A stretch of 64,000 nucleotides of DNA from NCBI RefSeq assembly GCF_036250755.1, contig NZ_CP109583.1, forward strand, positions 5,867,501 to 5,931,500, read 5' to 3'. The notes below the pieces were generated by a model. That model ran no database searches and had not been told where the DNA came from. It saw nothing but the letters and a program-made list of their open reading frames with translations. Shown here piece after piece: positions 5,017 through 58,450 of this stretch (positions within the stretch are counted from its first letter, which is position 1; each line of letters starts with the position of its first letter). Origin of the DNA: Streptomyces uncialis. Its GTDB lineage: Bacteria; Actinomycetota; Actinomycetes; Streptomycetales; Streptomycetaceae. Position numbers and translations under genes: made by a program.

Positions 5017-6005
<989 letters not shown>

Positions 6006-40192: not shown

Positions 40193-40339
40193 GCTGGACG
40201 GCTCGCCTTTGGCTTGCGCTTCCGAGGTCTGTCCGGCTGGACGTATTTGTTCCCTGTGCCGTCGCTCGTCGGGTGCGCGGTTCCCCGCGGGTCGCCTTCG
40301 CTTGCGCTTCCCAGGTCTGTCCGGGTGGGCGTACTTGTT

Positions 40340-41300
40340 CCTGTACAGGTTGTCCGGGGGTGCGCAGTTCCCCGCGCCCCTGAGGTGCTGCCCTTTTGCG
40401 GTTGTTCTTCGGGTGCGGGCCGGTCCTCGTTCTTGCGCGGTTCCCCGCGCCCCCGGGTTCGTCCACCTGAACGCATCTGTTCCTGTGCGGGCTGTCCGGG
40501 GGTGCGCAGTTCCTCGCGCCCCTGAGGTGCTGCCCTTTTGCGGTTGTTCTTCGGGTGCGGGGCCGTCCTCGTTCTTGCGCGGTTCCCCGCGCCCCCGGGT
40601 TCGTCCACCTGAACGCATCTGTTCCTGTGCGGGTTGTCCGGGGGTGCGCAGTTCCTCGCGCCCCTGAGGTGCTGCCCTTTTGCGGTCGTTCTTCGGGTGC
40701 GGGCCGGTCCTCGTTTTTGCGCGGTTCCCCGCGCCCCTGGGTTCGCCTACCTGAACGCATCTGTTCCTGTGCGGGTTGTCCGGGGGTGCGCAGTTCCTCG
40801 CGCCCCTGAGGTGCTGCCCTTTTGCGGTCGTTCTTCGGGTGCGGGGCCGTCCTCGTTTTTGCGCGGTTCCCTGCGCCCCTGGGTTCGCCTACCTGAACGC
40901 ATCTGTTCCTGTGCGGGTTGTCCGTGGGTGCGCAGTTGCTCGCGCCCCTGAGGTGCTGCCCTTTTGCGGTCGTTCTTCGGGTGCGGGGCCGTCCTCGTTT
41001 TTGCGCGGTTCCCTGCGCCCCTGGGGTCGTCCACCTGAACGCATCTGTTCCTGTGCGGGTTGTCCGTGGGTGCGCAGTTCCTCGCGCCCCTGAGGTGCTG
41101 CCCTCTTGCGGTCGTTCTTCGGGTGCGGGGCCGTCCTCGTTTTTGCGCGGTTCCCCGCGCCCCTGGGTTCGCCTACCTGAACGCATCTGTTCCTGTGCGG
41201 GTTGTCCGTGGGTGCGCAGTTCCCCGCGCCCCTGAGGTGCTGCCCCATTACGGTCGCTCTTCGGGTGCGGGCCGGTCCTCGTTTGCGCAGTTCCCCGCGC
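40340..41300 (+). repeat. Tandem array with exact 142-bp period
   Basis: The landmark GAGGTGCTGCCC begins at 40382, 40524, 40666, 40808, 40950, 41092 and 41234, always 142 bp apart. Units differ by only a few substitutions and no length change. Each unit contains two GCGC-GTTCC-CGCGCCCC cores separated by two different spacers. Because 142 is not a multiple of three, the open frames through the array shift from unit to unit and are not genes. Confidence 0.95.
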
Positions 41301-41348
41301 CCCTTTGGGGGCGCCTCGGGTTGCTGGGGCTGTCCGTCTTCTGCGGAA

Positions 41349-41485
41349 CCCCCCTCCTCGCGCAGTCGCATGGCTGCGGGAGGGGGTGGGCGGGAATCTC
41401 TGCCCGCAGACTCCGATGCTCTTCAGTCGGGTAAGGGGGATGTCCGACCGAGCGCGTTGGAGCGAGGACGGAGAATCCCGACCGG
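41349..41485. repeat. Core element copy A (about 136 bp)
   Basis: Begins CCCCCTCCTC and ends GAATCCCGACCGG. It is almost identical to 58023-58158: over the central 120 bases I find one substitution (GGGTAAG versus GGGCAAG). It contains potential stems, TGCGGG...CCCGCA around GGGCGGGAATCTCTGCCCGC and GTCC...GGAC further on. It has no credible reading frame. It is flanked on both sides by the modular repeats in opposite orientations. A structured RNA or a mobile non-coding element are both possible. Confidence 0.85.
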
Positions 41486-41865
41486 CCCCGACCCGAAGAA
41501 CCGGCCGGATGCGCCCCAAAGGGGCGCGGGGAACTGCGCGAAACCACCGAGCGACGGCACAGGAACGAAGGGCGCCCAGCCGGACGGACCTCGGAAGCGC
41601 AAGCGAAGGCGACCCGCGGGGAACTGCGCGAAGACGAGAACCGCCCCGCACCCGAAGAGCGACCAGAAGGGGCAGCATCCAGGGGCGCGGGGAACTGCGC
41701 GAAACCACCGAGCGACGGCACAGGAACGAAGTACGTCCCGCCGGACGGACCTGGGAAGCGCAAGCGAAGGCGACCCGCGGGGAACTGCGCACCCCACGAG
41801 CGACGGCACAGGGAACAAGTGCGCCCAGCTGGAACCCCAGGCGCGACGGGGAGCCGTGGAACGTG

Positions 41866-42852
41866 TCAGCGGCGGGGCGCCGGGCGGGACTGGGCGCGCT
41901 GCCAGCCCAGCCAAGCCGACGTGACCATGTCGCGCACATCCCGCTGCGGCTTCCACCCGAGCACCCGCGCGGCCCGATCGGCACAGGCGACGACCCGCGC
42001 GGGGTCCCCCGCCCGCCGCGGCGCGACCTCCGGCGGGAGACGACTGCCCGTGGCGGCCGTGATCTCGCTGATCATCTCGCGCACGGAGACCCCCTCGCCC
42101 CGCCCGATGTTGAGGGTCAGTTCGGCGCCCGGACCCCGCTCCCGCAGATGCCGCGCGGCGGCCACATGCGCCTCGGCCAGGTCCGCGACATGGATGTAGT
42201 CACGTACACAGGTGCCGTCCGGCGTCGCGTGGTCGGTGCCGAAGATACGCGGCGGCCGGTTCGCGGTCAGCCGCTCCAGGACCATGGGGACAAGGTTGAA
42301 CTTGCCGCTGTCCGCGAGTTCGGGTGAGGCGGCCCCCGCGACGTTGAAGTAGCGCAGCGACGCCGTCGACAGCCCATGGGCGCGCCCGGCGGCCCTGACC
42401 AGCCACTCACCGACGAGCTTGGTCTCGCCGTACGGGTTCACCGGCACGCACGGGGTGTCCTCCGTGACCAGCCGGGTGTCCGGCGCGCCGTAGACGGCCG
42501 CCGACGACGAGAAGACGAACGAGGACACCTCGGCCGCCGTCACCGCGTCGAGGAGGACCCGCAGGCCCTCGACGTTCTCGTGGTAGTAGCGCAGCGGGAG
42601 TTCCACGGACTCGTCGACCCGTTTGCGGCCCGCCAGATGCACGACCCCGGTGATCTCGTGCCCGGACAGCGCGCGGGCGACCAGCTTCGGGTCCAGGGTC
42701 GATCCCACCACCAGGGGTACGCCGTCGGGCACCCGGTCGGCGTCGCCGGTGGAGAGGTCGTCGTAGACCACGGTCCGCTCGCCCGCCGCGCGCATCGCGC
42801 GGACGACATGGGCCCCGATGTAGCCGGCACCGCCGGTGATCAGCCAGGTCAT
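41866..42852 (-). CDS. galE: UDP-glucose 4-epimerase
   Basis: A 328-residue short-chain dehydrogenase-type epimerase that interconverts UDP-glucose and UDP-galactose (or the N-acetyl forms). The N-terminal NAD-binding motif is TGGAGYIG, the catalytic Ser lies in FSSSAAVYG and the Tyr-X3-Lys pair is YGETK. The C-terminal sugar-binding segment includes CVRDYIHVADLAEAH. Length is normal. It sits beside glycosyltransferase genes rather than a galactose operon, so it likely supplies UDP-galactose for surface polymer. It is transcribed in the same direction as the GT2 and GT87 genes upstream, after a 245-bp gap that includes the palindrome CGCCCGTACGGGCG at 42949. Confidence 0.93.
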   Translation of the reverse strand: MTWLITGGAGYIGAHVVRAMRAAGERTVVYDDLSTGDADRVPDGVPLVVGSTLDPKLVARALSGHEITGVVHLAGRKRVDESVELPLRYYHENVEGLRVLLDAVTAAEVSSFVFSSSAAVYGAPDTRLVTEDTPCVPVNPYGETKLVGEWLVRAAGRAHGLSTASLRYFNVAGAASPELADSGKFNLVPMVLERLTANRPPRIFGTDHATPDGTCVRDYIHVADLAEAHVAAARHLRERGPGAELTLNIGRGEGVSVREMISEITAATGSRLPPEVAPRRAGDPARVVACADRAARVLGWKPQRDVRDMVTSAWLGWQRAQSRPAPRR

Positions 42853-43097
42853 GGTCGTTGTTCACCCTGTCCTGTCGTATGGGCGCGCGTCTGGCGGCGC
42901 GCGCTGAAGCGTGTCATGCGGTGGTCGCACGGACGCGCGAAGAGGGATCGCCCGTACGGGCGCAGTCTGTCAGAGCCCACCGCCCCCGCGCTGAGCTGCG
43001 ACGCAACCAAGAGGAATTCTGACTTCCCGTCAACAGTGGGCGCAAGTAACCCCTTTGGGTGATCTTCCGCGACGAGGTGCAGTGTCGTGCGCCGGTG

Positions 43098-44960
43098 CTA
43101 CGGGGAGGGCCGCCGTCCGCCGGGGCGCAGCAGCCGGACCAGCCGCCGTCGTGCGACCCCGAGCGCCCCGCGTGGCCCGAGGGCGATCCGCAGCGCGAGC
43201 GCCCCCGAGTGGGTGGCGTAGGGCTGCGCCAGCAGGAAGCCGTGCCGGGGGTCGGGGACGGCGTGGCGCCGCAGGTCCCCGGGTCCCTCCGCGGCGTGCG
43301 CGGTGACCCGGCGCCCGGTGCCGTCGGCGAACCGCAGCCGCACCCGCAGGTCCCATGTCCCGGCGCCCAGCTCCCGCAGCGGCACGGCGGCCTCGGCGGT
43401 CCAGGTGCCGTCGTGCCGCCCGGCGGTGAATTCCACGGCGTGCGCCCATCCCACCCGTCCCGACCGCCGTTCCGCGAACTCCGCGACGGCCGTCACAGGT
43501 CCCGCCGCGGCCACCCGCCCGTACAGCTCGTGCAGCCGGAGCCGCAGCAGTGTCCCGCGCGCGCGGGGGCGCAGCCGGCCCTCGACGGCCAGCGGCAGGG
43601 CCGCGGCGGGCCGGACGACGAGCTTCTCCAGGGTGGCCCCGGGCAGCTCGGCGGACCACACGGGGGTGCCGTCCGGATCGCGCGCGTAGGGCGGCAGCAG
43701 CCGGGCGGGACGGGCGGCGAGTTCCCGCAGCCGTACGAGGTCCCTGGGTTCGGGTGAGACGAGCAGCACGCGCGCGACGAGGCGTCCCGGACTGTCGGCG
43801 GGTTCCAGGTCGGCGCTGTCGAATCCGGCCAGATGGGCGCGGGCGTCGGCCCACCACAGTCGCCGGTACTCGGGGGAGCGGCGGACGAGCTCCTTCGCGT
43901 ACATGCGCAGCGAGAGGTCGAGGAACGCGGCCCGGCTCGCGCGCGCGAGGGACTTCGCGCCCGCCGCGCGGAGGATGTCGACGGCCTGTCCGTGGGCGCG
44001 GGTGCGGGCCCGCCAGTTGTCGACGCCCGCGCGGTCCAGCGAGATCGACAGCCGGGACGCCCCGCGCCGCACATGCCACACATAGACGGGGTCCGGCACG
44101 CGGGCGATCCGGGGCCCGGCGGCGAGCACCCGGGCGGTGAACACGAAGTCCTCGTAGGGGAAGCGGCCGTCGGGGAACCGGATGCCGTGGCCGCGCAGGA
44201 AGTCCGTGCGGTAGAGCTTGTTGACGCACAGGGTGTCCCGCGCGAGCGCCGGGAGATCGGCCGGGTGCTCCACGACGGGCAGCCCGGTGGGTGCTCCGAC
44301 GGGTCCGGCCGGGCCGCTTTCCGGGACGGCCGGGGGGCGTGGGGCGGCCCCGGCCGGGTCGAAGGGTTCGGCGGGGTCGGCCGGTTTCCAGGGGTCCGAC
44401 AGATCCACCAGGTCCAGCGGGTCCTCCGCCGGGTTCACCGGGTTCACCGGGTCCGGCGGGTCCGGCGCGTCCGGTGGTGCCGACGGGGGCGGGGGGAGCG
44501 CCGGATCACCGGGCCCGGTGGGGCGCGGGGTGTACAGCCGGGGCTGCCAGGGGGTGTCGGGGCCGTGGGGGAGTTCGCGGCGTACGCAGAGCCCCGCGGC
44601 GACCTGGGCACGGTGCTCCTGGGCGGCCGTGAGGAGCCGTTCGGCGGCCCGGGGCGGCAGGAGGTCGTCGCTGTCGAGGAACATCACGTACGGGGCCGTG
44701 CAGGCCGCCAGACCGTCGTTGCGGGGGGTGCCGCAGCCGCCGCTGTTGCCGGTGCGGGGCAGGACCCGCAGCCGGGGTTCGCCGTCCGCGAGGGCGGCCA
44801 GTACTTCCCGGCTGCCGTCGGTGGAGCCGTCGTCCACGGCGATCACCTCCCGGACCACCGGCCCTTGGGCCAGGGCGGAGCGCACCGCGTCGGCCACGTG
44901 CGTCGCGTCGTCGTGGCCGATCACGATCACGCTCACCTGGGCGTGGCGCGGGAGTTCCAC
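43098..44960 (-). CDS. Family 2 glycosyltransferase with proline-rich insertion
   Basis: A 620-residue GT2 enzyme. The GT-A core has VSVIVIGHDDATHVADAV, VDDGSTDGS and FLDSDDLLPP (metal-binding DSDD near 96-99). An insert of about 85 residues rich in Pro/Asp/Gly (about 145-228) splits the domain before VCVNKLYRTDFL-type acceptor-region sequence. The C-terminal 300 residues are beta-rich and resemble the tail of the GT2 at 38459. GTG 44960 has GAGGAG eight bases upstream. It overlaps the GT87 gene by 28 bases, so the two are coupled. Confidence 0.87.
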   Translation of the reverse strand: MELPRHAQVSVIVIGHDDATHVADAVRSALAQGPVVREVIAVDDGSTDGSREVLAALADGEPRLRVLPRTGNSGGCGTPRNDGLAACTAPYVMFLDSDDLLPPRAAERLLTAAQEHRAQVAAGLCVRRELPHGPDTPWQPRLYTPRPTGPGDPALPPPPSAPPDAPDPPDPVNPVNPAEDPLDLVDLSDPWKPADPAEPFDPAGAAPRPPAVPESGPAGPVGAPTGLPVVEHPADLPALARDTLCVNKLYRTDFLRGHGIRFPDGRFPYEDFVFTARVLAAGPRIARVPDPVYVWHVRRGASRLSISLDRAGVDNWRARTRAHGQAVDILRAAGAKSLARASRAAFLDLSLRMYAKELVRRSPEYRRLWWADARAHLAGFDSADLEPADSPGRLVARVLLVSPEPRDLVRLRELAARPARLLPPYARDPDGTPVWSAELPGATLEKLVVRPAAALPLAVEGRLRPRARGTLLRLRLHELYGRVAAAGPVTAVAEFAERRSGRVGWAHAVEFTAGRHDGTWTAEAAVPLRELGAGTWDLRVRLRFADGTGRRVTAHAAEGPGDLRRHAVPDPRHGFLLAQPYATHSGALALRIALGPRGALGVARRRLVRLLRPGGRRPSP

Positions 44961-46249: not shown

Positions 46250-46412
46250 CAGCGGGAGCGTATGCCGCACAACGGACGAGACCCCGCCTAATACGCCCAG
46301 GCGCCACCGTATGACCAGAAAATCGCCCGCATGCTGCTCAAGACCTGCCTCGCGGCCCGCTGCGCGCGGGAGGGCCGGCGAACTGCCGCGCGGGGCCGCC
46401 CGTCGTGTGTCC

Positions 46413-46745: not shown

Positions 46746-46768
46746 GGCCCGATCCTAACATTCAGTTC

Positions 46769-46793
46769 GATAGTTCGGGATTATGGAACTATC
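46769..46793. promoter_or_regulatory. Operator between ArsR-like regulator and MFS gene
   Basis: GATAGTTC - nine bases - GAACTATC, a perfect 8-bp inverted repeat, with an extra CAGTTCGA just before it that repeats the AGTTC half-site. It lies 24 bp from the regulator start and about 54 bp from the exporter start. It is AT-rich against the local background, as expected for a bound promoter. Confidence 0.75.
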
Positions 46794-46846
46794 CTGGAAG
46801 TTCTTCGACGCCCTCAGGGGCATCCGCGTCGCAGAAGGGAACGGCG

Positions 46847-48307
46847 TTGACCGCACACCAGGACTTACCGAAGGCCGAGGCACCCGAGGCAGTGGACAGG
46901 CGGCCGAAGCGGACAGCGCTCCTGCTCACCGTGACCTGTATGGGGCAGTTCATGGTGCTGCTCGACAGCACGATCGTCGGCGCGGCGCTGCCCGATATGC
47001 AGCAGCGCCTGCACCTCCGGCTGGACGGCCTGCAATGGATCGTCGACTCCTATGTGCTGCTCGTCGCCATGCTGCTGCTCTCCGGCGGTGTCCTCGCCGA
47101 CCGTCTCGGCCGCAAACGCGTGTTCCTGGCCGGTGCGACGGTGTTCACCCTCGCCTCGGTGCTGTGCGCCGCCGCCCCCTCGCCGGGATGGCTGATCGCT
47201 GGACGCGCGCTCCAGGGCATCGGGGCCGCCGCGCTGAGCCCCGCCTCGCTGGCTCTGCTCGCCGCCGCCCACCCCGTGCCGCAGGACCGCGTCAAGGCCA
47301 TCGGGCTGTGGGCCGGACTCAGCGGGATCGGCCTGGCCGCCGGACCGGCCGCCGGCGGGGTCCTGGTGGACGCGTTCGGCTGGCCGGCCATCTTCCTCGT
47401 CAACGTACCCATCGGCGCCGTCCTGCTCGTGGCCGCTCTGTACGTCCTGACCGAGTCCAGCGACCCGGCCGCACCGGCGATCGACATCCCGGGCGCGGCC
47501 CTGTCCGTCCTCGGTGTGGGGGCGCTGTCCTTCGGACTGATCGAGGGCGGTTCCCGCGGCTGGACCTCGCCGGTGATCCTCGGCAGCTTCGCCGCCGCGG
47601 TGGTGACCCTCGCCGCCTTCGTCGCCGTCGAACAGCGCGCTCCGGCACCGATGCTGCCGCTGCGGCTGTTCCGGCAGCGGCTGTTCACCGTCTCCAGCAC
47701 CGCGATGGCCGTCGTCGGTTTCGCGCTCATGGGGTCGTCCTTCTTCTTCTCCCAGTTCTTCGTCCACGTCCAGGGCAGTTCGATCCTGCGCGCGGGCCTC
47801 CAGACCCTGCCCGTCACCCTCGCCATGGTCGTCGTCAGCCCGTACGCGGGCCGTCTCGCCGTCAGGTACGGCTTCCGGATCGTGGTCACCACCGGCCTCG
47901 CCCTGGCCGGACCGGGGCTGCTGGCACTGGGCTTCGTCCAGGCCGACACCGCCTACGCGCACGTCTGGTGGCGACTGGCCGTCACCGGCGTCGGATTCGC
48001 CCTGGCCATGTCCCCGCTGACCGGAGCCGCCATCCAGGCCGTCGGCACGCACGAGAGCGGACTCGCGTCGGGTGTCATCAGCACCACCCGGCAGATCGGC
48101 GCGGTGCTCGGGGTGGCGGTCCTCGGAGCGGTCGTCCGCACCCGGCAGTCCGGCGGCGCCTCCTTCGAGGCAGCCCTCAGCAGCGCCTTCGTCGTGGCGG
48201 GCGCCGTCACCCTGGCCGGCGCCGTGGTCACCGGCCTGTGGCTGTGGACGCGCCGTGGAACGGGAGCAGCATCGTGTCCGACGCCCCCTCACGTCCCACG
48301 GCGGTGA
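46847..48307 (+). CDS. MFS multidrug-type exporter (DHA2, 14-TMS)
   Basis: A 486-residue drug:H+ antiporter of the DHA2 family. It shows TCMGQFMVLLDSTIVGAALP in the first helix, motif A as GGVLADRLGRKRVF, and motif C as GLSGIGLAAGPAAGGVLVD. About 14 hydrophobic segments are visible. The likely start is TTG 46847 (LTAHQDLPKAE), preceded by GAAGGGA; no ATG or GTG is well placed. It is divergent from the ArsR-like repressor and probably induced by the exported compound. Its 3' end overlaps the convergent GNAT gene by 80 bp. Confidence 0.92.
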   Translation: MTAHQDLPKAEAPEAVDRRPKRTALLLTVTCMGQFMVLLDSTIVGAALPDMQQRLHLRLDGLQWIVDSYVLLVAMLLLSGGVLADRLGRKRVFLAGATVFTLASVLCAAAPSPGWLIAGRALQGIGAAALSPASLALLAAAHPVPQDRVKAIGLWAGLSGIGLAAGPAAGGVLVDAFGWPAIFLVNVPIGAVLLVAALYVLTESSDPAAPAIDIPGAALSVLGVGALSFGLIEGGSRGWTSPVILGSFAAAVVTLAAFVAVEQRAPAPMLPLRLFRQRLFTVSSTAMAVVGFALMGSSFFFSQFFVHVQGSSILRAGLQTLPVTLAMVVVSPYAGRLAVRYGFRIVVTTGLALAGPGLLALGFVQADTAYAHVWWRLAVTGVGFALAMSPLTGAAIQAVGTHESGLASGVISTTRQIGAVLGVAVLGAVVRTRQSGGASFEAALSSAFVVAGAVTLAGAVVTGLWLWTRRGTGAASCPTPPHVPRR

Positions 48308-48764
48308 AGCCACGGGCGGCATAGAGACGGACGGCCGGGTTCCCGTCCTCCACGCTGAGGCTCAGCCCGTCGGCGCCGGACCGCTCCGCCAGCCTCACCA
48401 GTTCGTCCAGCAGGGCACTCCCGACACCACGTCCCCGATATGCGGGCAGAACACCGATGGTCAGCTCCGGCACCTGCGGGCCGACATGGCCGTACCCGGG
48501 TTCGTCGGCCGGGAAGACCCGCGCCCAGGCAGCACCCACAGGCCGCCCGGCGTCGTCCTCGGCCACCACGCCGAAGTCTCCCGGCCGGGGCCACCCCGTG
48601 ACGTAGTGCGCGATGTCCGGCGTCCCCAGGGCCTCGTCAAGGGTGAACCGGGGCCCGTCCCAGTTGAACGCCGCGAGCAGCACCTCCCCCAGAAACCCCC
48701 CGTCCCCCGCCCCCGCGGCCCGCAACCGAACCCCCGCACCGAAAACACCCGCCCCATCCGTCAT
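48228..48764 (-). CDS. GNAT family N-acetyltransferase
   Basis: A 178-residue single-domain GNAT. The acetyl-CoA loop reads YRGRGVGSALLDELVRLAE and the C-terminal part LSLSVEDGNPAVRLYAARGF is characteristic. Tail-to-tail with the MFS exporter, it may form a detoxification set with it (export plus modification), but this is inference from location. Its last 80 bases are antisense to the exporter's end. Confidence 0.92.
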   Translation of the reverse strand: MTDGAGVFGAGVRLRAAGAGDGGFLGEVLLAAFNWDGPRFTLDEALGTPDIAHYVTGWPRPGDFGVVAEDDAGRPVGAAWARVFPADEPGYGHVGPQVPELTIGVLPAYRGRGVGSALLDELVRLAERSGADGLSLSVEDGNPAVRLYAARGFTAVGREGASDTMLLPFHGASTATGR

Positions 48765-48854
48765 CCCCCCTACCTACCAACACCCCCACACCCCCCGCGA
48801 CCCATTAACCCCCAGTCCACAGGAACAGCCCCGCACCCGAAGGACATCATCAGC

Positions 48855-49205
48855 CAGCCAGCGCCCCCAAAGGGGCGCGGGGAACTGCGCAAACCCACGA
48901 GCGACGGCACAGGAATGAAGTACCCCCCGCCGGACAGACCCAGGAAGCGCAAGTGAAGGCGACCCGCGGGGAACCGCGCAAAAACGAGGACCGCCCCGCA
49001 CTCGAAGAACAACCCGAAGGGGCGCCCCAAAGGGGCGCGGGGAACTGCGCAAAAGACGAGGGCAGCCCCGCACCCGAAGAGCGACAGCAAGAGGCACCCA
49101 CCCAGGGGCGCGGGGAACTGCGCAAACCCACGAGCGACGGCACAGGAACGAAGTACCCCCCGCCGGACAGACCCAGGAAGCGCAAGTGAAGGCGACCCGA
49201 GGGGA
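48855..49205 (-). repeat. Dispersed modular repeat, reverse orientation only
   Basis: Four copies of GGGGCGCGGGGAACTGCGCA-type cores (about 48873, 48968, 49034 and 49108) alternate with AGCGACGGCACAGGAA and CCGGACAGACCCAGGAAGCG spacers. It is the reverse-orientation version of the modules at 33.5 kb and lacks the 136-bp core. It occupies the gap between the GNAT and the membrane-protein gene. A run of about 70 C/A-rich bases (48764-48840) precedes it. Confidence 0.85.
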
Positions 49206-49248
49206 ACAATCCCCCCGCCCCGCTCGTCAGACACCACAGAGGGTGTGG

Positions 49249-49284
49249 CGGGGCCGCTGGTATCCCCCCCCACCAGCGGCCCCG
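49249..49284 (-). terminator. Terminator hairpin near membrane-protein gene
   Basis: CGGGGCCGCTGGT, ten-base loop, ACCAGCGGCCCCG: a perfect 13-bp stem located 93-128 bases past the stop of the minus-strand gene at 49377. A second perfect hairpin, GTGCGCCGGG-CCCG-CCCGGCGCAC, lies at 49305-49328, closer to the stop. The pair would give efficient termination and insulate the gene from the repeat block. Confidence 0.8.
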
Positions 49285-49376
49285 CGCATCCTCGCCCCCC
49301 GATCGTGCGCCGGGCCCGCCCGGCGCACCCCGGCGTCCTGGTCAGACGCCCGTCACCCGCGTACGGGGTGCCCTGG

Positions 49377-50939
49377 TCAGGCGCCCCGCACCCGGGCGAG
49401 CACCTCCCCGCTGCGCGGGTCCCACGCGACGACGACCGCCTCCGGCGGAGCCGTCTGCCGGGGCGACAGCAGCAGCCACCGCACCCCGTAGCGCTTCACG
49501 ATCTCCGCCCGCCGCGTGGGCGAGGAGTTCGGCGCGAGATAGGTGTGCACCGCCGACCACCGGCGGCTCCGCTCGCGTTCCTCCAGCGCGGGATCGGGCC
49601 ACGGCGGCGCCACCAGGTTCAGCCCGTACCCCGGCAGTGACCGGGCAGGCCGGTACCCGTCCGCGAGGATCACCTCGCCGCGCCCGACATGCTGCGTCAC
49701 CCACGCGTACGTGGGCCACCGCGGCGGCTGCTTGAACCCGACCGGGTCCAGCGAGCGGGGCACCACCGCCCCCGCGTGCACCGTGAGGAAGCCGGTCAGC
49801 GCCGCCGCCACGGCCGCCACGCCGAGTGCCCGCCGCCGCCGTGACCAGGGCCGGGGCGTGGCCAGCTCCACCGCGAGGGCGAAGTGCAGCGGGACCAGGG
49901 CCATACCCATCACCCGTCCGTAGGTGTAGTGCCCGGTGAACCAGCCGTACGCGATGACCAGCAGGTCCAGGCCGAACATCAGCACCAGCGGGTCCCGGCC
50001 GCCGTCGCGCCGCCATCTGGCCCACAGCGCGGGCAGCCCCAGCGCCCCGAGCCAGAAGCGCTCACGGGTGTTCCGGTAGAGCCGTGCGTGGATGGCGTCC
50101 ACGCTGGAGTCGCCCGCCAGTGAGAACACCGAGAAATACGGCCACATCGCCGCCACCGCGCACGCCGCGAGCACGGCGAGCAGCCACGGCAGCCCGACCC
50201 CGTACCGGCGCCACGCCGCGCGTGACAGCCACTGCCGCCCGTGCGCGGGGACGACGAACGCCGCGACGCCGACGGCCGCCGCGATCACGGTGATCGGGTG
50301 GACGAGCAGGATCAGCCCGAGCAGCGCGCCCAGTCCCGCGTGCCCCCGCCACCGGGGCGCGGAGTCCCGGATCAGCGACGCCGTCCACGCCCATGCCCAG
50401 AAGGTCAGGCCGATCGCGAACGTGGACGGGTACCCGAGGTTCCCCGTCATCGACATCAGCCCGAGGAACCCGGACCACCAGGTGCCGAGCGTGCCCCACA
50501 GCAGCAGCATCGCGGCCAGCGCGAACACCGGTGCCCACGGCCCGGTCGTGGGGCGGGAGACCGCGCGGGTGAACCGGGCGACACCGGTGAGCAGGACCAG
50601 CAGGTTCACCGGGCCGGAGAGTTTGACGACCTCCCAGCCCGCGAGACCCGTGAGCTTCGCGAACAGCGCCTGCGTCACCGCGTACGGCGTGTAGTAGGGG
50701 CTGCCGTCGCCCGGCAGGTCGGCCATCGGGTGCCGGGGTGACAGCAGATCCGCCGTGAGACGTTCCACCACGGCCGCGTGCTGCCCGAAGTCGCAGCACA
50801 TCGGCACCCGCCAGTACGCGAGGGACATCACCAGCCAGAACAGCCCGCCGAACACCATGAACGGAGTGGGGCGCCGGCGGTGTCCGCGAAGCGCGGTAGC
50901 GCCCCGGGCCCGGGTACGGGTCAGGAGATCGGCGCTCAT
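49377..50939 (-). CDS. Polytopic membrane protein, GT-C-like (paralogue of 34579-36135)
   Basis: A 520-residue protein with about eleven hydrophobic segments. After the first helix comes CCDFGQHAAVVERL, then SPYYTPYAV, LLLWGTLGTWWSGF, YPSTFAIGLTFWAWAW, AMWPYFSVFSL, and a C-terminal YGVRWLLLSPRQ. Each block has a counterpart in the 34579-36135 protein at the same relative position, so the two are paralogues. The GT-C-like topology suggests transfer from a lipid-phosphate sugar. ATG 50939 is chosen because the hydrophobic region starts about 25 residues later. It is divergent from a TagF-like fusion gene. Confidence 0.8.
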   Translation of the reverse strand: MSADLLTRTRARGATALRGHRRRPTPFMVFGGLFWLVMSLAYWRVPMCCDFGQHAAVVERLTADLLSPRHPMADLPGDGSPYYTPYAVTQALFAKLTGLAGWEVVKLSGPVNLLVLLTGVARFTRAVSRPTTGPWAPVFALAAMLLLWGTLGTWWSGFLGLMSMTGNLGYPSTFAIGLTFWAWAWTASLIRDSAPRWRGHAGLGALLGLILLVHPITVIAAAVGVAAFVVPAHGRQWLSRAAWRRYGVGLPWLLAVLAACAVAAMWPYFSVFSLAGDSSVDAIHARLYRNTRERFWLGALGLPALWARWRRDGGRDPLVLMFGLDLLVIAYGWFTGHYTYGRVMGMALVPLHFALAVELATPRPWSRRRRALGVAAVAAALTGFLTVHAGAVVPRSLDPVGFKQPPRWPTYAWVTQHVGRGEVILADGYRPARSLPGYGLNLVAPPWPDPALEERERSRRWSAVHTYLAPNSSPTRRAEIVKRYGVRWLLLSPRQTAPPEAVVVAWDPRSGEVLARVRGA

Positions 50940-51303: not shown

Positions 51304-53592
51304 ATGCCCCGATTCTCCGTAGTCGTCCCCGTATATCGCATTCAGGGCTACCTACGGGAGTGCCTGGAGTCGGTCCTGGGACAGACCCCTCCCCCCGACG
51401 GCACCCCCGACCCCGCCCCCGTCACCCCCACGCCCGACGCCCCCGCCGCGCCCACCCCCGACCCCTCCACCCCGGGCGACCGCACCCCCGACCGCCCCAC
51501 CCCCAGCCGCCGCGCCCCCAGCCGCCGCGCCCCCCACCACCTCGCCGCCCCCGCCGCGCTCACCGTCGACCGCCCCACCCCCAGCCGTCCCCCCACCCTC
51601 GAACTCATCGTCGTGGACGACGCGTCCCCCGACGCGAGCGCCGCGATCGCCGCCGAGTACGCGGCCCGGGACCCCCGGGTCCGGCTGATCCGACTGGACC
51701 GGCACACCGGCGCGGGCGCGGCCCGCAACGCGGGAGCCGCCCGCGCCCGGGGCGAGTACCTCTTCTTCCTGGACGGTGACGACCTGCTGCTGCCGGGGGC
51801 CCTCACCGCCCTCGACCGGGCCCTCACCCACGCGGGCGACCCCGAGGTCCTGCTGTTCGGACACGACACGATCGACTGGTGGGAGACCGTCCGGCCGGTC
51901 GACGAGGACCTGACCGGCGACCCCCTCGCCCTCGCCCCCGTCGCCTGGAACCGGGTCGTACGACGCGAGTTCTGGCACGCCCACGCGCTGGGGTTCACCG
52001 ACGAGGCCCCCTACGAGGACGTGATCCCCGCCCACCGGGCCGTCCTGCTGGCGGGCGAGCGGGCCACCGTGCTCGACCGGGTCTGTGTGCGCTGGCGCGA
52101 ACGGCGCGGCGGCAGCGTCTCCACCACCCCCGGCCCCGCGCACCTCGCGTTCCTCGCCCGCTACGACACCCTGCTCGGCGGCCTCGCACCGGACGAGCGC
52201 GCCCGGGTCTTCCCGTACCTCACCCCCCGCGCGCTCGCCGTGCTCACCGATCCCGGCCGGATCAGGTCCGCCGACCGCCGGGACTTCTTCCGGGAGACCG
52301 CCCGGCTGCACCGCGCCCACGCGCCCGCCGGACACGTCCCGCGGACCGCGGAGGAACGCGCGGTCGCCGCCGGTTCCTCCCTCGCCTACGACAAGCTGCG
52401 CAAGGCCGGCACCCGGCGCCGACGCCTCGCCGCGGGACTGAACCGCGGACGGGCCGGGCTGCGCGGCAGGCTCATGCGGGCCGCCTACCGCGCCGACCTG
52501 CGCCGCGGACTCGACCCCCGGCTGGCCGTCTACAGCGCCTACTGGAACCGCGGTGTCTCCTGCAATCCCGCCGCCGTGTACGCCAAGGCCCGGGAACTCG
52601 CCCCGCACATCCGTGGGGTGTGGGTGGTCGCCGCCGAGCACCGCCACCATGTCCCGGACGGCGTCGAGTACGTCGTCGAGGGCACCCGCCGCTACTGGCG
52701 GACCATGGCCCGCGCCACCTACCTCGTCAGCAACTCCGGCTTCCCCGGCGGATTCACCAAACGCCCCGGCCAGACCTACCTCCAGACCCACCACGGCACC
52801 CCGCTCAAGAGGATGGGCCTCGATCAGCGCCGCTATCCCGCCGGGACGCACGGCATCAGCTTCAGCGCGGTCCTCGCCCACGCCGACCAGTGGGACCTCA
52901 GCCTCTCGGCCAACCCCCACTCCACCGAGGTCTGGGAACGCGGCTACCCCTCCACCGCGTACCGCGCCCTGGAACTGGGCTACCCCCGCAACGACGTCTA
53001 CTTCCGCACCGGACCCGACGAGGTCGGACGGCTGCGTGCCGCGCTCGGCGTCCCGCCCGGCCGCACGGCCCTGCTCTACGCGCCCACCCACCGGGACCAC
53101 CAGCCCGGCTTCCTGCCCCGGCTCGACCTGGAACGCTTCGTCCGCGCGCTGGGCCCCCGGTACGTGGTGCTGGTCCGCGCCCACTACCGCTGCGGACCCG
53201 GCGCGGAGGTCCCCCGGCACCCCCGCGTCCTCGACGTGACCGCCCACCACCGGGTCGAGGAACTGTGCCTCGCCGCCGACGCGCTGATCACCGACTACTC
53301 GTCACTGATGTTCGACTACGCATGCCTGGACCGCCCGATCATCACCTACGCCCCCGACTGGCAGGCGTACCGGCTGGCCCGCGGCACCTACTTCGACCTG
53401 CTGTCCGGCCGCCCCGGCGACACCCCGGGTGCCGTCGCCACCGTGGAGGACGAACTGATCGAACTGTTCCGCTCGGGCCGCTGGGACACCCCCGCGACGG
53501 ACCGCCTCCGCGCGGCGTTCCGCACCCGCTTCTGTCCCTACGACGACGGCCACGCGGCGGAACGGGTGGTCCGTGAACTCATGCTGACCTGA
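51304..53592 (+). CDS. GT2 / CDP-glycerol glycerophosphotransferase fusion with proline-rich insertion
   Basis: A 762-residue bifunctional-looking enzyme. The N-terminal GT2 domain starts RFSVVVPVYRIQGYLRECLESVLGQ in part, but a 70-residue Pro/Thr/Arg-rich insert (about residues 29-98) separates it from LELIVVDDASPD. The catalytic FLDGDDLLLP (DGDD at 157-160) is intact. The C-terminal half (about 403-760) is a glycerophosphotransferase domain with LQTHHGTPLKRMGLDQ, LLYAPTHRDH and LITDYSSLMFDY. It is a paralogue of 36243-38462, and the architecture is that reported for polydiglycosylphosphate-type synthases in Streptomyces (from memory). ATG 51304; a leaderless start is likely. Confidence 0.9.
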   Translation: MPRFSVVVPVYRIQGYLRECLESVLGQTPPPDGTPDPAPVTPTPDAPAAPTPDPSTPGDRTPDRPTPSRRAPSRRAPHHLAAPAALTVDRPTPSRPPTLELIVVDDASPDASAAIAAEYAARDPRVRLIRLDRHTGAGAARNAGAARARGEYLFFLDGDDLLLPGALTALDRALTHAGDPEVLLFGHDTIDWWETVRPVDEDLTGDPLALAPVAWNRVVRREFWHAHALGFTDEAPYEDVIPAHRAVLLAGERATVLDRVCVRWRERRGGSVSTTPGPAHLAFLARYDTLLGGLAPDERARVFPYLTPRALAVLTDPGRIRSADRRDFFRETARLHRAHAPAGHVPRTAEERAVAAGSSLAYDKLRKAGTRRRRLAAGLNRGRAGLRGRLMRAAYRADLRRGLDPRLAVYSAYWNRGVSCNPAAVYAKARELAPHIRGVWVVAAEHRHHVPDGVEYVVEGTRRYWRTMARATYLVSNSGFPGGFTKRPGQTYLQTHHGTPLKRMGLDQRRYPAGTHGISFSAVLAHADQWDLSLSANPHSTEVWERGYPSTAYRALELGYPRNDVYFRTGPDEVGRLRAALGVPPGRTALLYAPTHRDHQPGFLPRLDLERFVRALGPRYVVLVRAHYRCGPGAEVPRHPRVLDVTAHHRVEELCLAADALITDYSSLMFDYACLDRPIITYAPDWQAYRLARGTYFDLLSGRPGDTPGAVATVEDELIELFRSGRWDTPATDRLRAAFRTRFCPYDDGHAAERVVRELMLT

Positions 53593-53737
53593 GACGGGGC
53601 CCGGCGAGCGGCACCCCGCCCACCGGACCCCGCACCCCCTCACCGGACCCCCGAACCCGCTCACCGGAGGACCGCACCGGCCCCCCGCACCGGATCGGAC
53701 CACCGGGACACCACGAGCGGCTGTGCTCCACGAGCGG

Positions 53738-54655: not shown

Positions 54656-56004
54656 CGCCGTGCCTCCCGCCGCAGCCGCCGGATGTTGAACAGCATCACC
54701 GGGATCACGAGCAGCAGCAGCAGCACCGAGATCGCGCTCGCTACCCCTGGTCTGCCGTCGCTGAACGCCGACCGGTAGAGCTGGAGCGCCAGCACGTTCG
54801 CGTCGTCCTGCGACGAGCCGGGGGCGATGATGTACACCAGGTCGAAGATCTTCAGGACGTTGATCATCAGCGTCACCAGGACGACCGCGAGCACGGGCGC
54901 CAGCAGCGGCACGGTGATCCTGCGGAACACCTGCCACTCGTTCGCCCCGTCGACCCGGGCCGCCTCCATCAGCTCCCGGGGCACACTCGCGAGCCCCGCC
55001 GCGATCAGCACCATCGCGAAGCCCGCCCACATCCAGATGTACGACACGATCACCGCCGGGGTCACCAGCCCCGGCCCGAGCCAGTCCACCCCGTTGTACG
55101 CCTCCCGGAAGTTGGCCTCCGGCAGCCGCAGCAGCGCCCCGTCCGCCTTGTCCGACAGGGTGAACGTCCCGTCGGCGGCGGCGGTCGTCCGTTCGACGAC
55201 CGTCCCGTCCCGCACGGCCTCGATCCGCATCCCCGGATATCCGAGCTCCGCGCTGTCGACCCCGCCGAGGGTGCCCACGCCCTTGCCCCGGGTGAAGTCC
55301 TGCCAGGTCGTGCCCGTCACCTTCCCCGGATCGGCGGACGCGGCCTTCGCGGCCTTCGCCCCGTCCGGCATCAGGTCCGGCGCCACCCCGACCAGCGGCA
55401 GTACGACCGGCTCACCTACGCGCACCGGATCCTTGGTGACGAACGCCCCGCCGCCCGCCGCGCGCAGCGGCGAATCACGGCCCGGGTGGGCCTTCGGGAA
55501 CGCCGACGACTCGGCGAACGTGTCGTGCACCCCCACCCACACCGCGTTGGCGACACCCCGGTCCGGGTCCTGGTCGTAGACCAGCCGGAAGATGATGCCC
55601 GCCGCCAGCATCGAGATCGCCATCGGCATGAAGACGACCAGCTTGAACGCCGTGCCCCAGCTGACCCGTTCGGTCAGCACCGCGAAGATCAGCCCGAGGG
55701 CCGTCGCCAGGGTCGGCGCGAGGACGATCCAGATCACGTTGTTGCGGAACGCGGTCCTGATGCCGTCGTCCGTGAAGAGTTCCCGGTAGTTGTCGATCCC
55801 GGCGAAACCGCCGCCGGTGTCGCTGACGAAACTGCGGATCAGCGAGTACCCGATCGGGTAGACCACGAGTGCGCCGAGCAGCATCACGGCGGGCAGCAGG
55901 AACAGCACCACCACCGCCTTGCGGGTACCCGTCACACTCTTGCGCCGTGGGGACCTGGGGGACACCGGGCCGCTGCCGGTGCCCCCCGCCGTTGCCGACG
56001 TCAT
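54652..56004 (-). CDS. Carbohydrate ABC transporter permease (MalF-like) with large periplasmic-side insert
   Basis: A 450-residue permease. Hydrophobic segments lie at about 30-52, 86-108, 122-142, 312-340, 365-390 and 425-443. The EAA loop is ELMEAARVDGANEWQVF. Between the third and fourth segments lies an extracytoplasmic insert of about 140 residues (160-300). It contains VGEPVVLPLVGVAPDLMP and a beta-strand-like stretch (MRIEAVRDGTVVERTTAAAD) resembling small carboxypeptidase-regulatory-like folds. MalF proteins can carry such loops, but this one is unrelated by eye. It overlaps the next gene by ATGA and starts seven bases after the binding protein stop. Confidence 0.92.
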   Translation of the reverse strand: MTSATAGGTGSGPVSPRSPRRKSVTGTRKAVVVLFLLPAVMLLGALVVYPIGYSLIRSFVSDTGGGFAGIDNYRELFTDDGIRTAFRNNVIWIVLAPTLATALGLIFAVLTERVSWGTAFKLVVFMPMAISMLAAGIIFRLVYDQDPDRGVANAVWVGVHDTFAESSAFPKAHPGRDSPLRAAGGGAFVTKDPVRVGEPVVLPLVGVAPDLMPDGAKAAKAASADPGKVTGTTWQDFTRGKGVGTLGGVDSAELGYPGMRIEAVRDGTVVERTTAAADGTFTLSDKADGALLRLPEANFREAYNGVDWLGPGLVTPAVIVSYIWMWAGFAMVLIAAGLASVPRELMEAARVDGANEWQVFRRITVPLLAPVLAVVLVTLMINVLKIFDLVYIIAPGSSQDDANVLALQLYRSAFSDGRPGVASAISVLLLLLVIPVMLFNIRRLRREARR

Positions 56005-56011
56005 CGCCGGA

Positions 56012-57433
56012 TCAGTCCTTGTACGCCTTGGCCGCGGCGGCCTCCAGCTTCTGCTGGGCCCCCGCCACGTCCTTCGGATCCTTCAGGAAGTCCTGGAGCA
56101 CCTTCCACTCGCCCTTGCCGGGGGTGCCGCCGAACGCCTGCGGAGCCTGGTCCGACATATCGAAGCGGAAGTCGTCGCCCGCGCCGACCAGCGCCTTCGC
56201 GATGTCCCGCTGGACGTCGTTCGGGTACGACGCGAGATCCAGGCTCTTGTTCGGCGAGAGATAGCCGCCGAGCTTCGCCCAGACCGCCGCCGCGTCCGGC
56301 GACGCGAGGAAGGTGAGCAGTGCCTGGCCCGCCTTCGACTCCTTCAGCAGCACCGCCGCGTCACCGCCGCTGACCACGGGCGCCTCGCCGCCCACCGCGG
56401 GGAACGGGAACACCTTCGCGTCCGTGCCGATCTTCGCGTTCGCCTGGGCGACATTGATCCCGACGAAGTCCCCCTCGAAGACCATGCCCGCCTCCGGCTG
56501 GTCGCCGCCGGTGAACGTCTGCTCCACCGAGCGCGGGAACTCCGTCTGGAGCGCGCCGTCCGCGCCGCCCGCCAGATAGTCGTCCTTGCCGAAGAGCTCC
56601 CCGAGGGTGGTCAGGGCCTTCTTCACGGACGGGTCCGTCCACTTGATCTCGTGCTTGGCGAGCTGGTCGTACTTCTCCGGCCCGGCCTGCGACAGATAGA
56701 CGTTCTCGAACCAGTCGGTGAGCACCCAGCCGTCGGCGCCGCCGACCGACATCGGGGTCACCCCCGAGTCGTACACCGTCCGCGCCGTCGCCATGAACTC
56801 GTCCCAGGTCTTCGGCTCCTTCGCCCCCGCGTTCTCGAAGACGGTCGTGTTGTACCAGACCAGCGACTTGTTGGCGGCCTTGAAGTACACGCCGTACTGC
56901 TCGCCGTCCACCTTCCCCAGGTCCTGCCAGCCCCGGGCGAAGTTCTTCGTCAACTGCTCCTTCGCGTCCGCGCCGACCGGCTTGGCCCACTTGTTGTCGA
57001 CGGCCTGCTTCACGGCGCCGACCTGCGGGAGCATCGCCACGTCCGGCGGGGCGCCGCCCGCGATCTTCGAACCGAGGAAGTTGATGATCGGGTCCTGTGC
57101 GGGGACGAACGTGACCTTCGCGCCCGTCCGCTTCTCGAACTCGGCGAGCACCTTCTTGAAGTTCTCCTGCTCCGGTCCCGTCCATACGGCGGCGACCTCC
57201 AGCTTCTGCCCGTCCAGCTTGGGCAGTTGGAGTCCGGAGCCGCTGGGCGCGGTGGCGGTGCCCGTCGCGTTGTTCGCCCCGTCGCCGTCGCTGTCGCCGC
57301 CGTCGTCACCGCAGGCCGCCAGGCTCAGGGCGAGGGCGGTGGTGACCGCGAGGGCCCTGACCGGATGCCGGTGCCGGCGGCTCGTGGTCCTGCTGGTTCC
57401 GTTCGGATTTCCGTGCGGGTTGGTGGTGCGCAT
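56012..57433 (-). CDS. ABC transporter extracellular solute-binding lipoprotein
   Basis: A 473-residue sugar-binding lipoprotein (family 1 solute-binding proteins). A basic N-terminus and hydrophobic stretch lead to the lipobox SLAAC (Cys 41), then an Asp/Gly/Thr-rich linker. The mature domain includes VWTGPEQENFKKVLAEFEKR, the hinge-like WYNTTVFENAGAKEPKTWDEF and TFLASPDAAAVWAKLGGYLSP. It captures the substrate outside the membrane for the two permeases downstream. It is the first gene of the operon. ATG 57433 is the only start giving a normal signal peptide. Confidence 0.95.
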   Translation of the reverse strand: MRTTNPHGNPNGTSRTTSRRHRHPVRALAVTTALALSLAACGDDGGDSDGDGANNATGTATAPSGSGLQLPKLDGQKLEVAAVWTGPEQENFKKVLAEFEKRTGAKVTFVPAQDPIINFLGSKIAGGAPPDVAMLPQVGAVKQAVDNKWAKPVGADAKEQLTKNFARGWQDLGKVDGEQYGVYFKAANKSLVWYNTTVFENAGAKEPKTWDEFMATARTVYDSGVTPMSVGGADGWVLTDWFENVYLSQAGPEKYDQLAKHEIKWTDPSVKKALTTLGELFGKDDYLAGGADGALQTEFPRSVEQTFTGGDQPEAGMVFEGDFVGINVAQANAKIGTDAKVFPFPAVGGEAPVVSGGDAAVLLKESKAGQALLTFLASPDAAAVWAKLGGYLSPNKSLDLASYPNDVQRDIAKALVGAGDDFRFDMSDQAPQAFGGTPGKGEWKVLQDFLKDPKDVAGAQQKLEAAAAKAYKD

Positions 57434-57462
57434 CGCTGCCCCGTCCTCTTGACGCGTCTGGC

Positions 57463-57476
57463 TCGCGTGCTTGCGA
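57463..57476. promoter_or_regulatory. Possible LacI-type operator upstream of sugar transporter
   Basis: TCGCGTGCTTGCGA, an imperfect palindrome (outer TCGC/GCGA arms), 30 bases before the binding-protein start. LacI-family repressors of sugar operons bind palindromes of this general type, with a central CpG. No regulator gene is adjacent, so this is weak evidence. Confidence 0.3.
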
Positions 57477-57589
57477 ACGCTGGTCCGTGGGACCTGGTGT
57501 ACGCCCGTGGGGTTCGGCCCGACAAGGGAACCGCCCCGCCCAACTACCCGATCGTGTCACCCTCGTGACTTCCCGCCCCCGCCCCTGGG

Positions 57590-58450
57590 TTTCCCGTGCG
57601 GGTCGCCTTCGCTCGCGCTTCCGAGGTCCGTCCGGCTGGGCGTACTTGTTCCCTGTACGGGTACGTCCGGGGGTGCGCAGTTCCCCACGGGTCGCCTTCG
57701 CTCGCGCCGCGAGGTCTGTCCGGCTGGGCGTACTTGTTCCCTGTGCGGCTACGTCCGGGGGTGCGCAGTTCCCCGCGCCCCTGGGTGGTGCCCCCTTGCG
57801 ATCGTTCTTCGGGTGCGGGTCCGTCCTCGTCTTTTGCGCAGTTCCCCGCGGGTCGCCTTCGCTTGCGCCCCGAGGTCTGTCCGGGTAGGCGTACTTGTTC
57901 CCTGTGCCGTCGTTCGTGGGGTGCGCAGTTCCCCGCGCCCCTTTGGGGCGCCCACCTGGGGCTGTTCTCAGTCTGCGGGTGGGGTCAGACAGCAGGCCGG
58001 CGTCAGCTCGGCTGGGGTTCAACCCCCTCCTCTCGCAGTCGCATGGCTGCGGGAGGGGGTGGGCGGGAATCTCTGCCCGCAGACTCCGATGCTCTTCAGT
58101 CGGGCAAGGGGGATGTCCGACCGAGCGCGTTGGAGCGAGGACGGAGAATCCCGACCGGCACCGACCCGAAGAACCGACAGAACGCGCCCCAAAGGGGCGC
58201 GGGGAACTGCGCAAGAACGAGAACCGGCCCGCACCCGAACAGCGACGAACAGGGGCAGCATCCAGGGGCGCGGGGAACTGCGCGAAACCACCGAGCGACG
58301 GCACAGGAACAAGCGCGTCCAGCCGGACAGACCTAGGAAGCGCAAGCGAAGGCGACCCGCGGGGAACTGCGCAAACCCACCGAGCGACGGCACAGGAACA
58401 AGCGCGTCCACCCGGACAGACCTCACAAGCGCAAGCCAAGGCAACCCCCA
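57590..58450. repeat. Second modular repeat complex with inverted arms around the core
   Basis: The left arm (57590 to about 57955) holds forward modules: CGCTTCCGAGGTCCGTCCGG, CGTACTTGTTCCCTGT and GCGCAGTTCCCCGCGCCCC. The right arm (about 58190-58450) holds the same modules reversed: GGGGCGCGGGGAACTGCGC, AGCGACGGCACAGGAACAAG and CCGGACAGACCT. The core sits between them at 58023-58158. The outer ends again form inverted repeats. The element fills the 1.06-kb gap between the sugar transporter and the FHA/FtsK gene. It has the same plan as 40197-41860 without the tandem amplification. Confidence 0.88.
58023..58158. repeat. Core element copy B (about 136 bp)
   Basis: Near-identical to 41349-41485 from the CCCCCTCCTC start through GAATCCCGACCGG. 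It is followed in both places by ACCCGAAGAACCG and then GCGCCCCAAAGGGGCGCGGGG. Identity this high between two sites 16.7 kb apart, in otherwise diverging repeats, implies recent duplication, gene conversion or selection. Confidence 0.85.

What the first reader, a model, noticed from the sequence alone, without database searches (positions are those of the whole stretch)
40197..58450. Two copies of an arm-core-inverted arm element with a nearly identical 136-bp core
At 40.2-41.9 kb and 57.6-58.5 kb the same plan appears. Forward GC-rich modules come first, then a core of about 136 bp, then the same modules in reverse. The two cores (41349-41485 and 58023-58158) differ by about one base in 120, while the arms have diverged and one has amplified. 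The outer ends are inverted repeats of each other. No transposase or gene lies inside. This looks like a defined non-coding element, not random GC-rich spacer: a non-autonomous mobile unit, a recombination or chromosome-organisation site, or a transcribed structured RNA. I know of no named Streptomyces element with this layout.
Basis: seen in the sequence. Interest (0 to 1): 0.78.

Follow-up and report, generated by a model that had tools for sequence, protein, structure and literature searches.

The report
High-copy hairpin repeat of Streptomyces uncialis
The two look-alike stretches are two of at least 150 copies of a non-coding, hairpin-rich repeat that sits between genes in one Streptomyces lineage, built from a short palindrome that many other Streptomyces also carry; how it spreads and what it does are open.

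Summary
The window's genome (flanking genes about 98% identical to Streptomyces uncialis DCA2648) carries at least 150 full-length copies of the core. In 179 of 179 core-bearing clusters examined, 15-bp sites (GCGCAGTTCCCCGCG), spaced by 53-75-bp cassettes, all point at the core. The core folds as two hairpins; read as RNA, the element tested folds into one giant hairpin.

The core is lineage-specific: of 295 Streptomyces species genomes, only the window's own has it convincingly. The site is genus-wide: it occurs in 31 of 61 Streptomyces genomes and in 0 of 137 other class members. Other species surround different centres with the same convergent layout, or have only a bare palindrome.

Elements sit between genes, mostly by 3' ends. 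Positions agree between the two strains (18 of 18 mapped sites), but cassette number and core alleles change fast. No target duplication, fixed end or REP-type transposase was found.

I read it as an untagged, REP/BIME-like mosaic repeat, amplified around a lineage-specific structured core and remodelled by recombination between and within copies. The route of first insertion and any cellular function are not shown.

The parts
40200..41347 (+). Element 1, left arm: 15 forward sites (GCGCAGTTCCCCGCG and variants) separated by cassettes, including 6.8 copies of a 142-bp two-cassette unit
41348..41497 (+). Element 1, core (hairpin 1 about 41354-41385; main hairpin about 41386-41486)
   Evidence: coordinates of L004 in alignment A1
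41498..41850 (-). Element 1, right arm: 4 reverse sites with cassettes
57592..57951 (+). Element 2, left arm: 4 forward sites; 57923-57951 is the inner inverted repeat next to the core
58021..58170 (+). Element 2, core (hairpin 1 about 58027-58058; main hairpin about 58059-58159); in S. uncialis DCA2648 the core at this site lies in the opposite orientation
58184..58450 (-). Element 2, right arm: 3 reverse sites; 58184-58212 is the inner inverted repeat
33384..33920 (+). Gap holding a one-sided array of 4 forward sites, no core
48307..49377 (-). Gap holding a one-sided array of 4 reverse sites, no core

Best explanation
The two stretches are members of a high-copy, extragenic, non-coding mosaic repeat that is REP/BIME-like in kind. 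SHOWN: a 15-bp half-palindrome, GCGCAGTTCCCCGCG followed by CCCC, is a genus-wide Streptomyces repeat whose smallest observed form is a bare inverted pair (a hairpin). In this lineage the halves carry tandem 53-75-bp cassettes, and the centre carries a structured core of about 140 nt (two hairpins). SHOWN: copies lie between genes, mostly next to 3' ends. Their positions agree between two strains about 98% identical at all 18 sites mapped, while cassettes are gained and lost and core segments change mostly between alleles already present in the family. INFERRED: recombination within an element (unequal exchange at the sites) and between elements (gene conversion across the shared arms) remodels the copies. 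INFERRED: conversion across arms could also have carried the lineage's core into other palindromes, since every core seen is centred between convergent arms. INFERRED: gene 3' ends are where such DNA does least harm, and there the transcribed element, a very stable hairpin from either strand, may block or protect RNA 3' ends. The route by which the first palindromes entered new gaps is not shown.
For: Grammar: 179 of 179 core clusters read forward sites, core, reverse sites. Same chassis with other centres: 25 centres in genome G083, no core match in any G083 locus fetched; bare 12-17-nt centres in G083 and G032. Genus limit: 8 of 11 Streptomyces, 0 of 137 others. 3' bias: 52 convergent, 78 tandem, 8 divergent, 0 inside genes of 138 cores. 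Positions: 18 of 18 shared. Turnover: site number differs at 18 of 21 shared elements; 257 of 298 core differences are between alleles each carried by at least 5% of copies. Mosaic: mean r2 falls from 0.244 within 5 bp to 0.009 beyond 80 bp, four gametes in 669 of 741 column pairs, while the main hairpin is inherited largely as a unit. Folding: z -42 for element 2 (20 shuffles), -5.2 for its core.
Against: In the less selected set, the S. uncialis ortholog is still the closest core for 13 of 18 own copies, so turnover between copies is moderate; the lower figure (7 of 21) came from a set chosen for likeness to the window core. Opposite arms of one element are not more alike than arms of different elements, so exchange between arms is not supported. 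Cassette types are biased to one side of the core, which simple conversion of a symmetric palindrome does not explain. None of 31 predicted core pairs shows a change on both sides, so conserved RNA structure is not proved. Three site-bearing Streptomyces (G064, G011, G073) do have a Y1 transposase match, so a link between such an enzyme and the site in other species is not excluded. With 2 mismatches allowed, 10 sites or cores of the unselected sample fall inside called genes. No donor and recipient of a conversion event was caught in the act, and insertion into an empty palindrome was not observed.
Confidence: 0.6

Rival explanations
1. A MITE-like element: the whole arm-core-arm unit is moved in trans by a transposase that was not identified here.
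For: Lineage-specific burst to at least 150 copies. Not found in the homologous gap of other species: of 29 relatives' loci none shows a convergent array or a core match, and both flanking genes were found in 26. The commonest end words on both sides share the motif GTCGCCTTCGC.
Against: No shared direct word at the ends above chance (3.63 observed, 3.73 in shuffles). Ends vary in length and in cassette. 18 of 18 mapped sites shared between strains. No gene seen inside the elements. Only one transposase family (PF01797) was tested.
Confidence: 0.2
2. A functional structured RNA: the core is transcribed and acts as RNA, the arms being its processing or stability stem.
For: Core z-score -5.2 in the forward and -3.3 in the reverse strand. 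Paired columns of the main-stem region vary far less than unpaired ones (mean entropy 0.07 against 0.42, p 1.8e-6). In the main stem the common changes listed all keep a standard pair in the forward strand.
Against: Core orientation is unrelated to the transcription of tandem neighbours (36 along, 42 against). One core is inverted between strains. No Rfam match in the elements. No double-sided compensatory change. No expression data.
Confidence: 0.1
3. A chromosome-organisation or protein-binding array: the repeated 15-bp site is bound by a nucleoid or condensin-type protein, with convergent order setting polarity.
For: Strict polarity of the sites. The 150 listed copies are concentrated in the chromosome centre: 2 in the terminal 2.4 Mb against 39 expected, the limits being set after seeing the list.
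Against: 30 of 61 sampled Streptomyces have no exact 19-mer, so it cannot be essential to the genus. No orientation bias about the assumed origin (66 of 150).
Confidence: 0.07
4. An invertible switch: the inverted repeats beside the core are sites of a dedicated invertase.
For: The core of element 2 is inverted between the two strains at its 29-bp inner repeats.
Against: 36 of 37 distinct shared elements have the same orientation, and arms keep side-specific cassette types.
Confidence: 0.03

Closest known systems
REP sequences (GTAG- and CGTC-tagged; PMC3733652, passages read)
   Same: Short palindromic repeats in high copy, extragenic, clustered, next to gene 3' ends and between convergent genes, copy number differing strongly among species.
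   Different: No GTAG or CGTC tag (0 of 63 sites in G000, 0 of 597 in S. uncialis loci). No Y1 transposase found in the genome. Here half-palindromes are spread out in long polar arrays around a structured core. The same paper mentions untagged REP-like families in other bacteria; this would be one of that sort. The word Streptomyces does not occur in the paper's held main text.
BIMEs of enterobacteria (recalled)
   Same: Mosaic composites of a palindromic unit plus spacer motifs, extragenic.
   Different: BIME units alternate in orientation (recalled); here all units point at one centre, and the centre is a lineage-specific core of about 140 nt.
MITEs
   Same: Non-coding, inverted-repeat organisation, lineage-specific high copy.
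   Different: No constant terminal inverted repeat, no detectable target duplication, variable length (5th-95th percentile 367-977 bp).
Intrinsic terminators
   Same: GC-rich hairpins between convergent genes.
   Different: At the one locus compared (L166) an ordinary hairpin is seen by eye in many relatives' gaps beside the end of the right-hand gene; G000 has one there too, and the element lies beside it (read), so the element is an addition.

Membership tests
REP (GTAG/CGTC super-families) | Short palindrome in high copy, extragenic, 3'-end biased | tested here: met
   (3' bias tested on core-bearing elements of G000 and S. uncialis only)
REP (GTAG/CGTC super-families) | GTAG or CGTC tetranucleotide next to the palindrome | tested here: not met
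   0 of 63 sites (G000), 0 of 597 (S. uncialis loci), 0 of 86 (G083), 0 of 19 (G032), 1 of 9 (G009, CGTC)
REP (GTAG super-family) | Associated RAYT (Y1 tyrosine transposase, PF01797) in the genome | tested here: not met
   none in G000, G083 or G032, the three site-richest; 4 of 25 genomes match, three with sites (G064, G011, G073) and one without (G025); the control rings in 5 of 14 known genomes
BIME | Mosaic of palindromic units and spacer motifs between genes | tested here: met
BIME | Units in alternating orientation (recalled) | tested here: not met
   179 of 179 core clusters are strictly convergent
MITE | Constant terminal inverted repeats | tested here: not met
   ends vary; the commonest outer 12-mer is shared by 8 of 131 left ends, though several of the commonest words share one motif
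MITE | Target-site duplication | tested here: not met
   3.63 observed against 3.73 shuffled; end positions are approximate, so a short duplication could be missed
MITE | Insertion polymorphism among close strains | tested here: not met
   18 of 18 mapped S. uncialis cores also present in G000 (18 of 127 could be mapped)
Known structured RNA (Rfam 15) | Match to a curated family | tested here: not met
   one weak match (E 0.47, below the gathering score) outside the elements, none in them
Functional structured RNA | Compensatory changes on both sides of pairs | tested here: not met
   0 of 40 and 0 of 31 pairs; nearly all pairs hardly vary, so the test has little power
Functional structured RNA | Transcription of the core | not testable with these tools
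   no expression data at hand
Phage- or plasmid-borne repeat | Present in phage or plasmid records | tested here: not met
   window 41190-41520 has no match in 72,556 plasmid and 50,697 phage records (low-complexity filter on)

The most novel reading that the evidence does not exclude
A genus-wide palindromic 'chassis' that acts as a landing platform: each Streptomyces lineage fits its own structured centre between the same convergent half-sites, and that centre spreads through the genome without a transposase, by recombination across the shared arms. Positions then stay fixed while modules (cassettes, tail, main hairpin) are reshuffled between copies.
Probability: 0.3. Interest if true: 0.75.

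Novelty: new variant of a known kind. Interest (0 to 1): 0.56.

Why it matters
High-copy extragenic repeats are best known from Proteobacteria, where a tyrosine transposase is thought to spread many of them (PMC3733652, passages). Here a Streptomyces lineage has at least 150 copies of an element of about 640 bp that is unusually large and ordered, with no such transposase found, stable positions and fast internal change. It offers a tractable case for asking how bacterial repeats spread and homogenise without a dedicated enzyme. The range across the genus, from no exact site to over a thousand, is a ready comparative series. It also warns annotators: arrays of 15-bp repeats with 42-75-bp spacers could be taken for CRISPR arrays (my inference), and the core could be taken for a new RNA.

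Tried and rejected
Known RNA family: an Rfam scan of the 18.6-kb stretch gave nothing in the elements. Weak core match in another species (G235, 36 bits): the locus has no arm sites within 2 mismatches, taken as chance. RAYT-driven REP: rejected for G000. Phage or plasmid origin: no match. Exchange between the two arms of one element: opposite arms are not more alike (0.79, 16 elements) than arms of different elements (0.82), whereas same-arm cassettes are (0.87, 45 elements, p 1.3e-6, a test that pools non-independent pairs). Replication-strand bias: none (66 of 150, origin position assumed). Target duplications: none detected. Element as the gene pair's terminator: rejected at the one locus compared. 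Free reassortment of all core columns was my first reading; one search showed that the main hairpin stays together. One search raised a divide warning that could have printed false zeros, so I repeated it: Cramer's V is 0.31-0.64 within the main hairpin, 0.67 within the tail, 0.14-0.46 within hairpin 1, and at most 0.29 (median 0.08, 51 block pairs, one more too sparse) between modules. So the unit claim holds for the main hairpin and tail, not for hairpin 1. My first ortholog set (7 of 21 orthologs ranked first) was biased, since own loci were chosen by likeness to the window core; the less selected set gave 13 of 18, and both are reported.

Rows dropped: one search leaves out 19 of 157 cores at locus edges, and S. 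uncialis loci already paired with own loci; one search aligns 173 of 179 cores; one search uses 131 elements with 1.5-kb flanks; one search uses 532 cassettes from 145 elements; maps 18 of 127 S. uncialis cores, the rest having no fetched G000 counterpart. Of the 18, one is the window's own element 2, three lie in the evenly spaced samples, and the others in DNA fetched at positions predicted from S. uncialis.
Full report
WHAT IS THERE. Both stretches are as described. The cores at 41348-41497 and 58021-58170 are 98% identical over 143 bp. Each lies between forward modules on its left and reverse modules on its right, and my codon-usage gene caller puts no gene in either gap. The modules are cassettes of about 53-75 bp (lengths) separated by a 15-bp site, GCGCAGTTCCCCGCG. 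Element 1 has 15 forward and 4 reverse sites, element 2 has 4 and 3. The long left arm of element 1 is a 142-bp two-cassette unit repeated 6.8 times. Element 1 lies between convergent genes (38459-40192 plus, 41866-42852 minus); element 2 lies between two minus-strand genes.

IT IS A LARGE FAMILY. The window belongs to a 9.26-Mb genome (G000). A covariance model of 30 cores, built, scored 150 candidates there, the cap, and all 150 were full-length at 146-187 bits. So there are at least 150 copies; 20 evenly spaced 20-kb samples hold 6. Of 295 Streptomyces species genomes searched with the model, G000 matched, and one other (G235) gave a 36-bit match with no arm sites near it, taken as chance. 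That search used stricter filters and 10 scored candidates per genome. Flanking genes of that strain are mostly 97-99% identical to G000.

STRICT GRAMMAR. In the fetched G000 and S. uncialis loci, 179 of 179 core-bearing clusters read forward sites, core, reverse sites (site scan with one mismatch; 8 have no site on the left and 5 none on the right). Those loci were chosen for the core. An unselected 400 kb of G000 plus the window gave 14 multi-site gaps, 7 of them with a core, and 8 cores in all (one at a sample edge); none of the 14 had the diverging order, and 10 sites or cores of this sample fell inside called genes when 2 mismatches were allowed. Five convergent pairs without a full core were also seen in the core-chosen loci; two of them look like remnants of deleted cores, by my reading. 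Cassette types are biased to one side of the core: 49 to 0, 59 to 2 and 124 to 27 on the left, 7 to 40 on the right, for four of the five commonest types; the fifth is 17 to 23. So the element has a polarity and is not a plain mirror.

GENE CONTEXT. Of 138 cores with both neighbours called, 52 lie between convergent genes, 78 between tandem genes, 8 between divergent genes and none inside a gene. In tandem gaps the core is nearer the upstream gene's end (median 315-329 bp) than the next start (481-504 bp). Core orientation is unrelated to tandem transcription (36 along, 42 against). The 150 listed copies avoid the chromosome ends: 2 in the terminal 2.4 Mb against 39 expected, with limits I set after seeing the list.

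THE CHASSIS IS GENUS-WIDE, THE CORE IS NOT. The 19-mer made of the site plus CCCC has 1156 exact copies in G000, 748 in G083, 392 in G032, and none in 30 of 61 Streptomyces genomes. In a class-wide draw it is found in 8 of 11 Streptomyces and 0 of 137 others. In G083 the same convergent order surrounds 25 distinct centres made of other hairpins; no G083, G032, G009, G013 or G022 locus fetched has a core match. Some centres are only 12-17 nt, so the element there is a bare palindrome (G083 L266; G032 L302, L306). The order is not absolute elsewhere: one G009 locus (L314) ends in a diverging pair. I read the bare palindrome as the older form and the arrays plus core as a lineage-specific build-up; that direction is inferred.

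COMPARISON WITH EMPTY GAPS. One convergent gap of G000 (L166) was compared with 29 other Streptomyces. In 26 both flanking genes were found in the locus. None of the 29 shows a convergent array or a core match (one search gave the loci); four carry a single site-like word (L277, L278, L285, L300), and L299 is partly masked. Many of these gaps show, by eye, an ordinary hairpin near the end of the right-hand gene, and G000 has one there beside its element. So the element is an addition to an ordinary gap. These relatives are too distant (about 71-83% DNA identity over the matched part) to define an insertion junction.

DYNAMICS BETWEEN TWO STRAINS. Eighteen S. uncialis cores could be mapped to G000 DNA fetched by predicted position, to the evenly spaced samples, or to the window, and the core is present at the same site in 18 of 18. 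A first set of 21, chosen for cores on both sides, is shared by construction. Two elements are in both sets, so there are 37 distinct shared elements; 36 have the same orientation. The exception is element 2 of the window, whose core is inverted between its 29-bp inner repeats, and which also differs in sequence. Site number differs at 18 of 21 shared elements. Core identity at shared sites is 88-99%, mean 95%, and 84-99% in the first set, with flanks mostly at 97-99%. Of 298 core differences in the first set, 257 are between alleles each carried by at least 5% of copies. The ortholog is the best match for 13 of 18 in the less selected set and 7 of 21 in the set chosen by likeness to the window core.

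MOSAIC CORES. Among 173 cores, association between variable columns falls from mean r2 0.244 within 5 bp to 0.009 beyond 80 bp, and 669 of 741 column pairs show all four combinations. By blocks, the five variable segments of the main hairpin stay associated (Cramer's V 0.31-0.64), the tail segments too (0.67), hairpin 1 less so (0.14-0.46), while associations between modules are at most 0.29, median 0.08 (which repeats with its divide warning mended). So the main hairpin seems to reassort as a unit against its neighbours. Recurrent mutation at loop positions could add to this.

STRUCTURE. The core folds with z -5.2 in the forward and -3.3 in the reverse strand. Paired columns of the main-stem region are far less variable than its unpaired columns. 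The common stem variants listed keep standard pairing in the forward strand, but no pair changed on both sides, so an RNA role is not proved. The whole of element 2 folds at -601 kcal/mol against -418 in 20 shuffles, z -42, as expected from its inverted arms.

MECHANISM. Shown: shared sites, changing cassettes, reassorting modules, one inversion, and no Y1 (REP-type) transposase match in G000. Against a simple story, three site-bearing species (G064, G011, G073) do have one. Inferred: recombination within and between elements does the remodelling, and conversion across the arms may have carried the core into palindromes. Not shown: how palindromes reach new gaps, and any cellular function. A transposase acting in trans remains possible (0.2); only one family was tested.

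LITERATURE. Ten full-text searches of the open-licence library returned no paper that by its listing describes this element; only the top rows of the longer lists were shown, and subscription papers are mostly missing there. I read passages, not whole texts, of PMC3733652 and PMC1590033.

VERDICT. A real, ordered, high-copy repeat: a new variant of the REP/BIME kind that fails the REP tag and transposase tests and the BIME alternation test (recalled), so it is like them without being a proven member.

Noticed in passing
window 33384-33920 and 48307-49377: Two gaps carry one-sided arrays of four sites each without a core; they may be half elements or remnants.
   Followed up: partly
L176 about 5619-5889 and L152 about 4144-4414: An apparently shared convergent element whose centre is unlike the usual core (271 nt including the two sites in both strains), perhaps an older or different centre.
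   Followed up: no
L105 6655-6789 and L154 1363-1537: Convergent elements whose centre looks like a core with its main hairpin partly or wholly deleted.
   Followed up: no
L176 1-1118 against L077: A stretch that matches S. uncialis at several offsets of about 333 bp, suggesting a tandem repeat of variable copy number next to an element.
   Followed up: no
L170 near 1126-1216 against L061: S. uncialis has about 2.5 kb where G000 has 89 bp; no arm sites nearby, a strain-specific insertion or deletion.
   Followed up: no
window 36264-38462 and 51304-53592: Two CDP-glycerol glycerophosphotransferase-family proteins (PF04464) with glycosyltransferases around them: likely a cell-wall glycopolymer region.
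   Followed up: no
G083 loci L222-L271: Centres made of hairpins with TTCG and GCGAAGC loops, recurring within that genome: a second centre family on the same chassis.
   Followed up: partly
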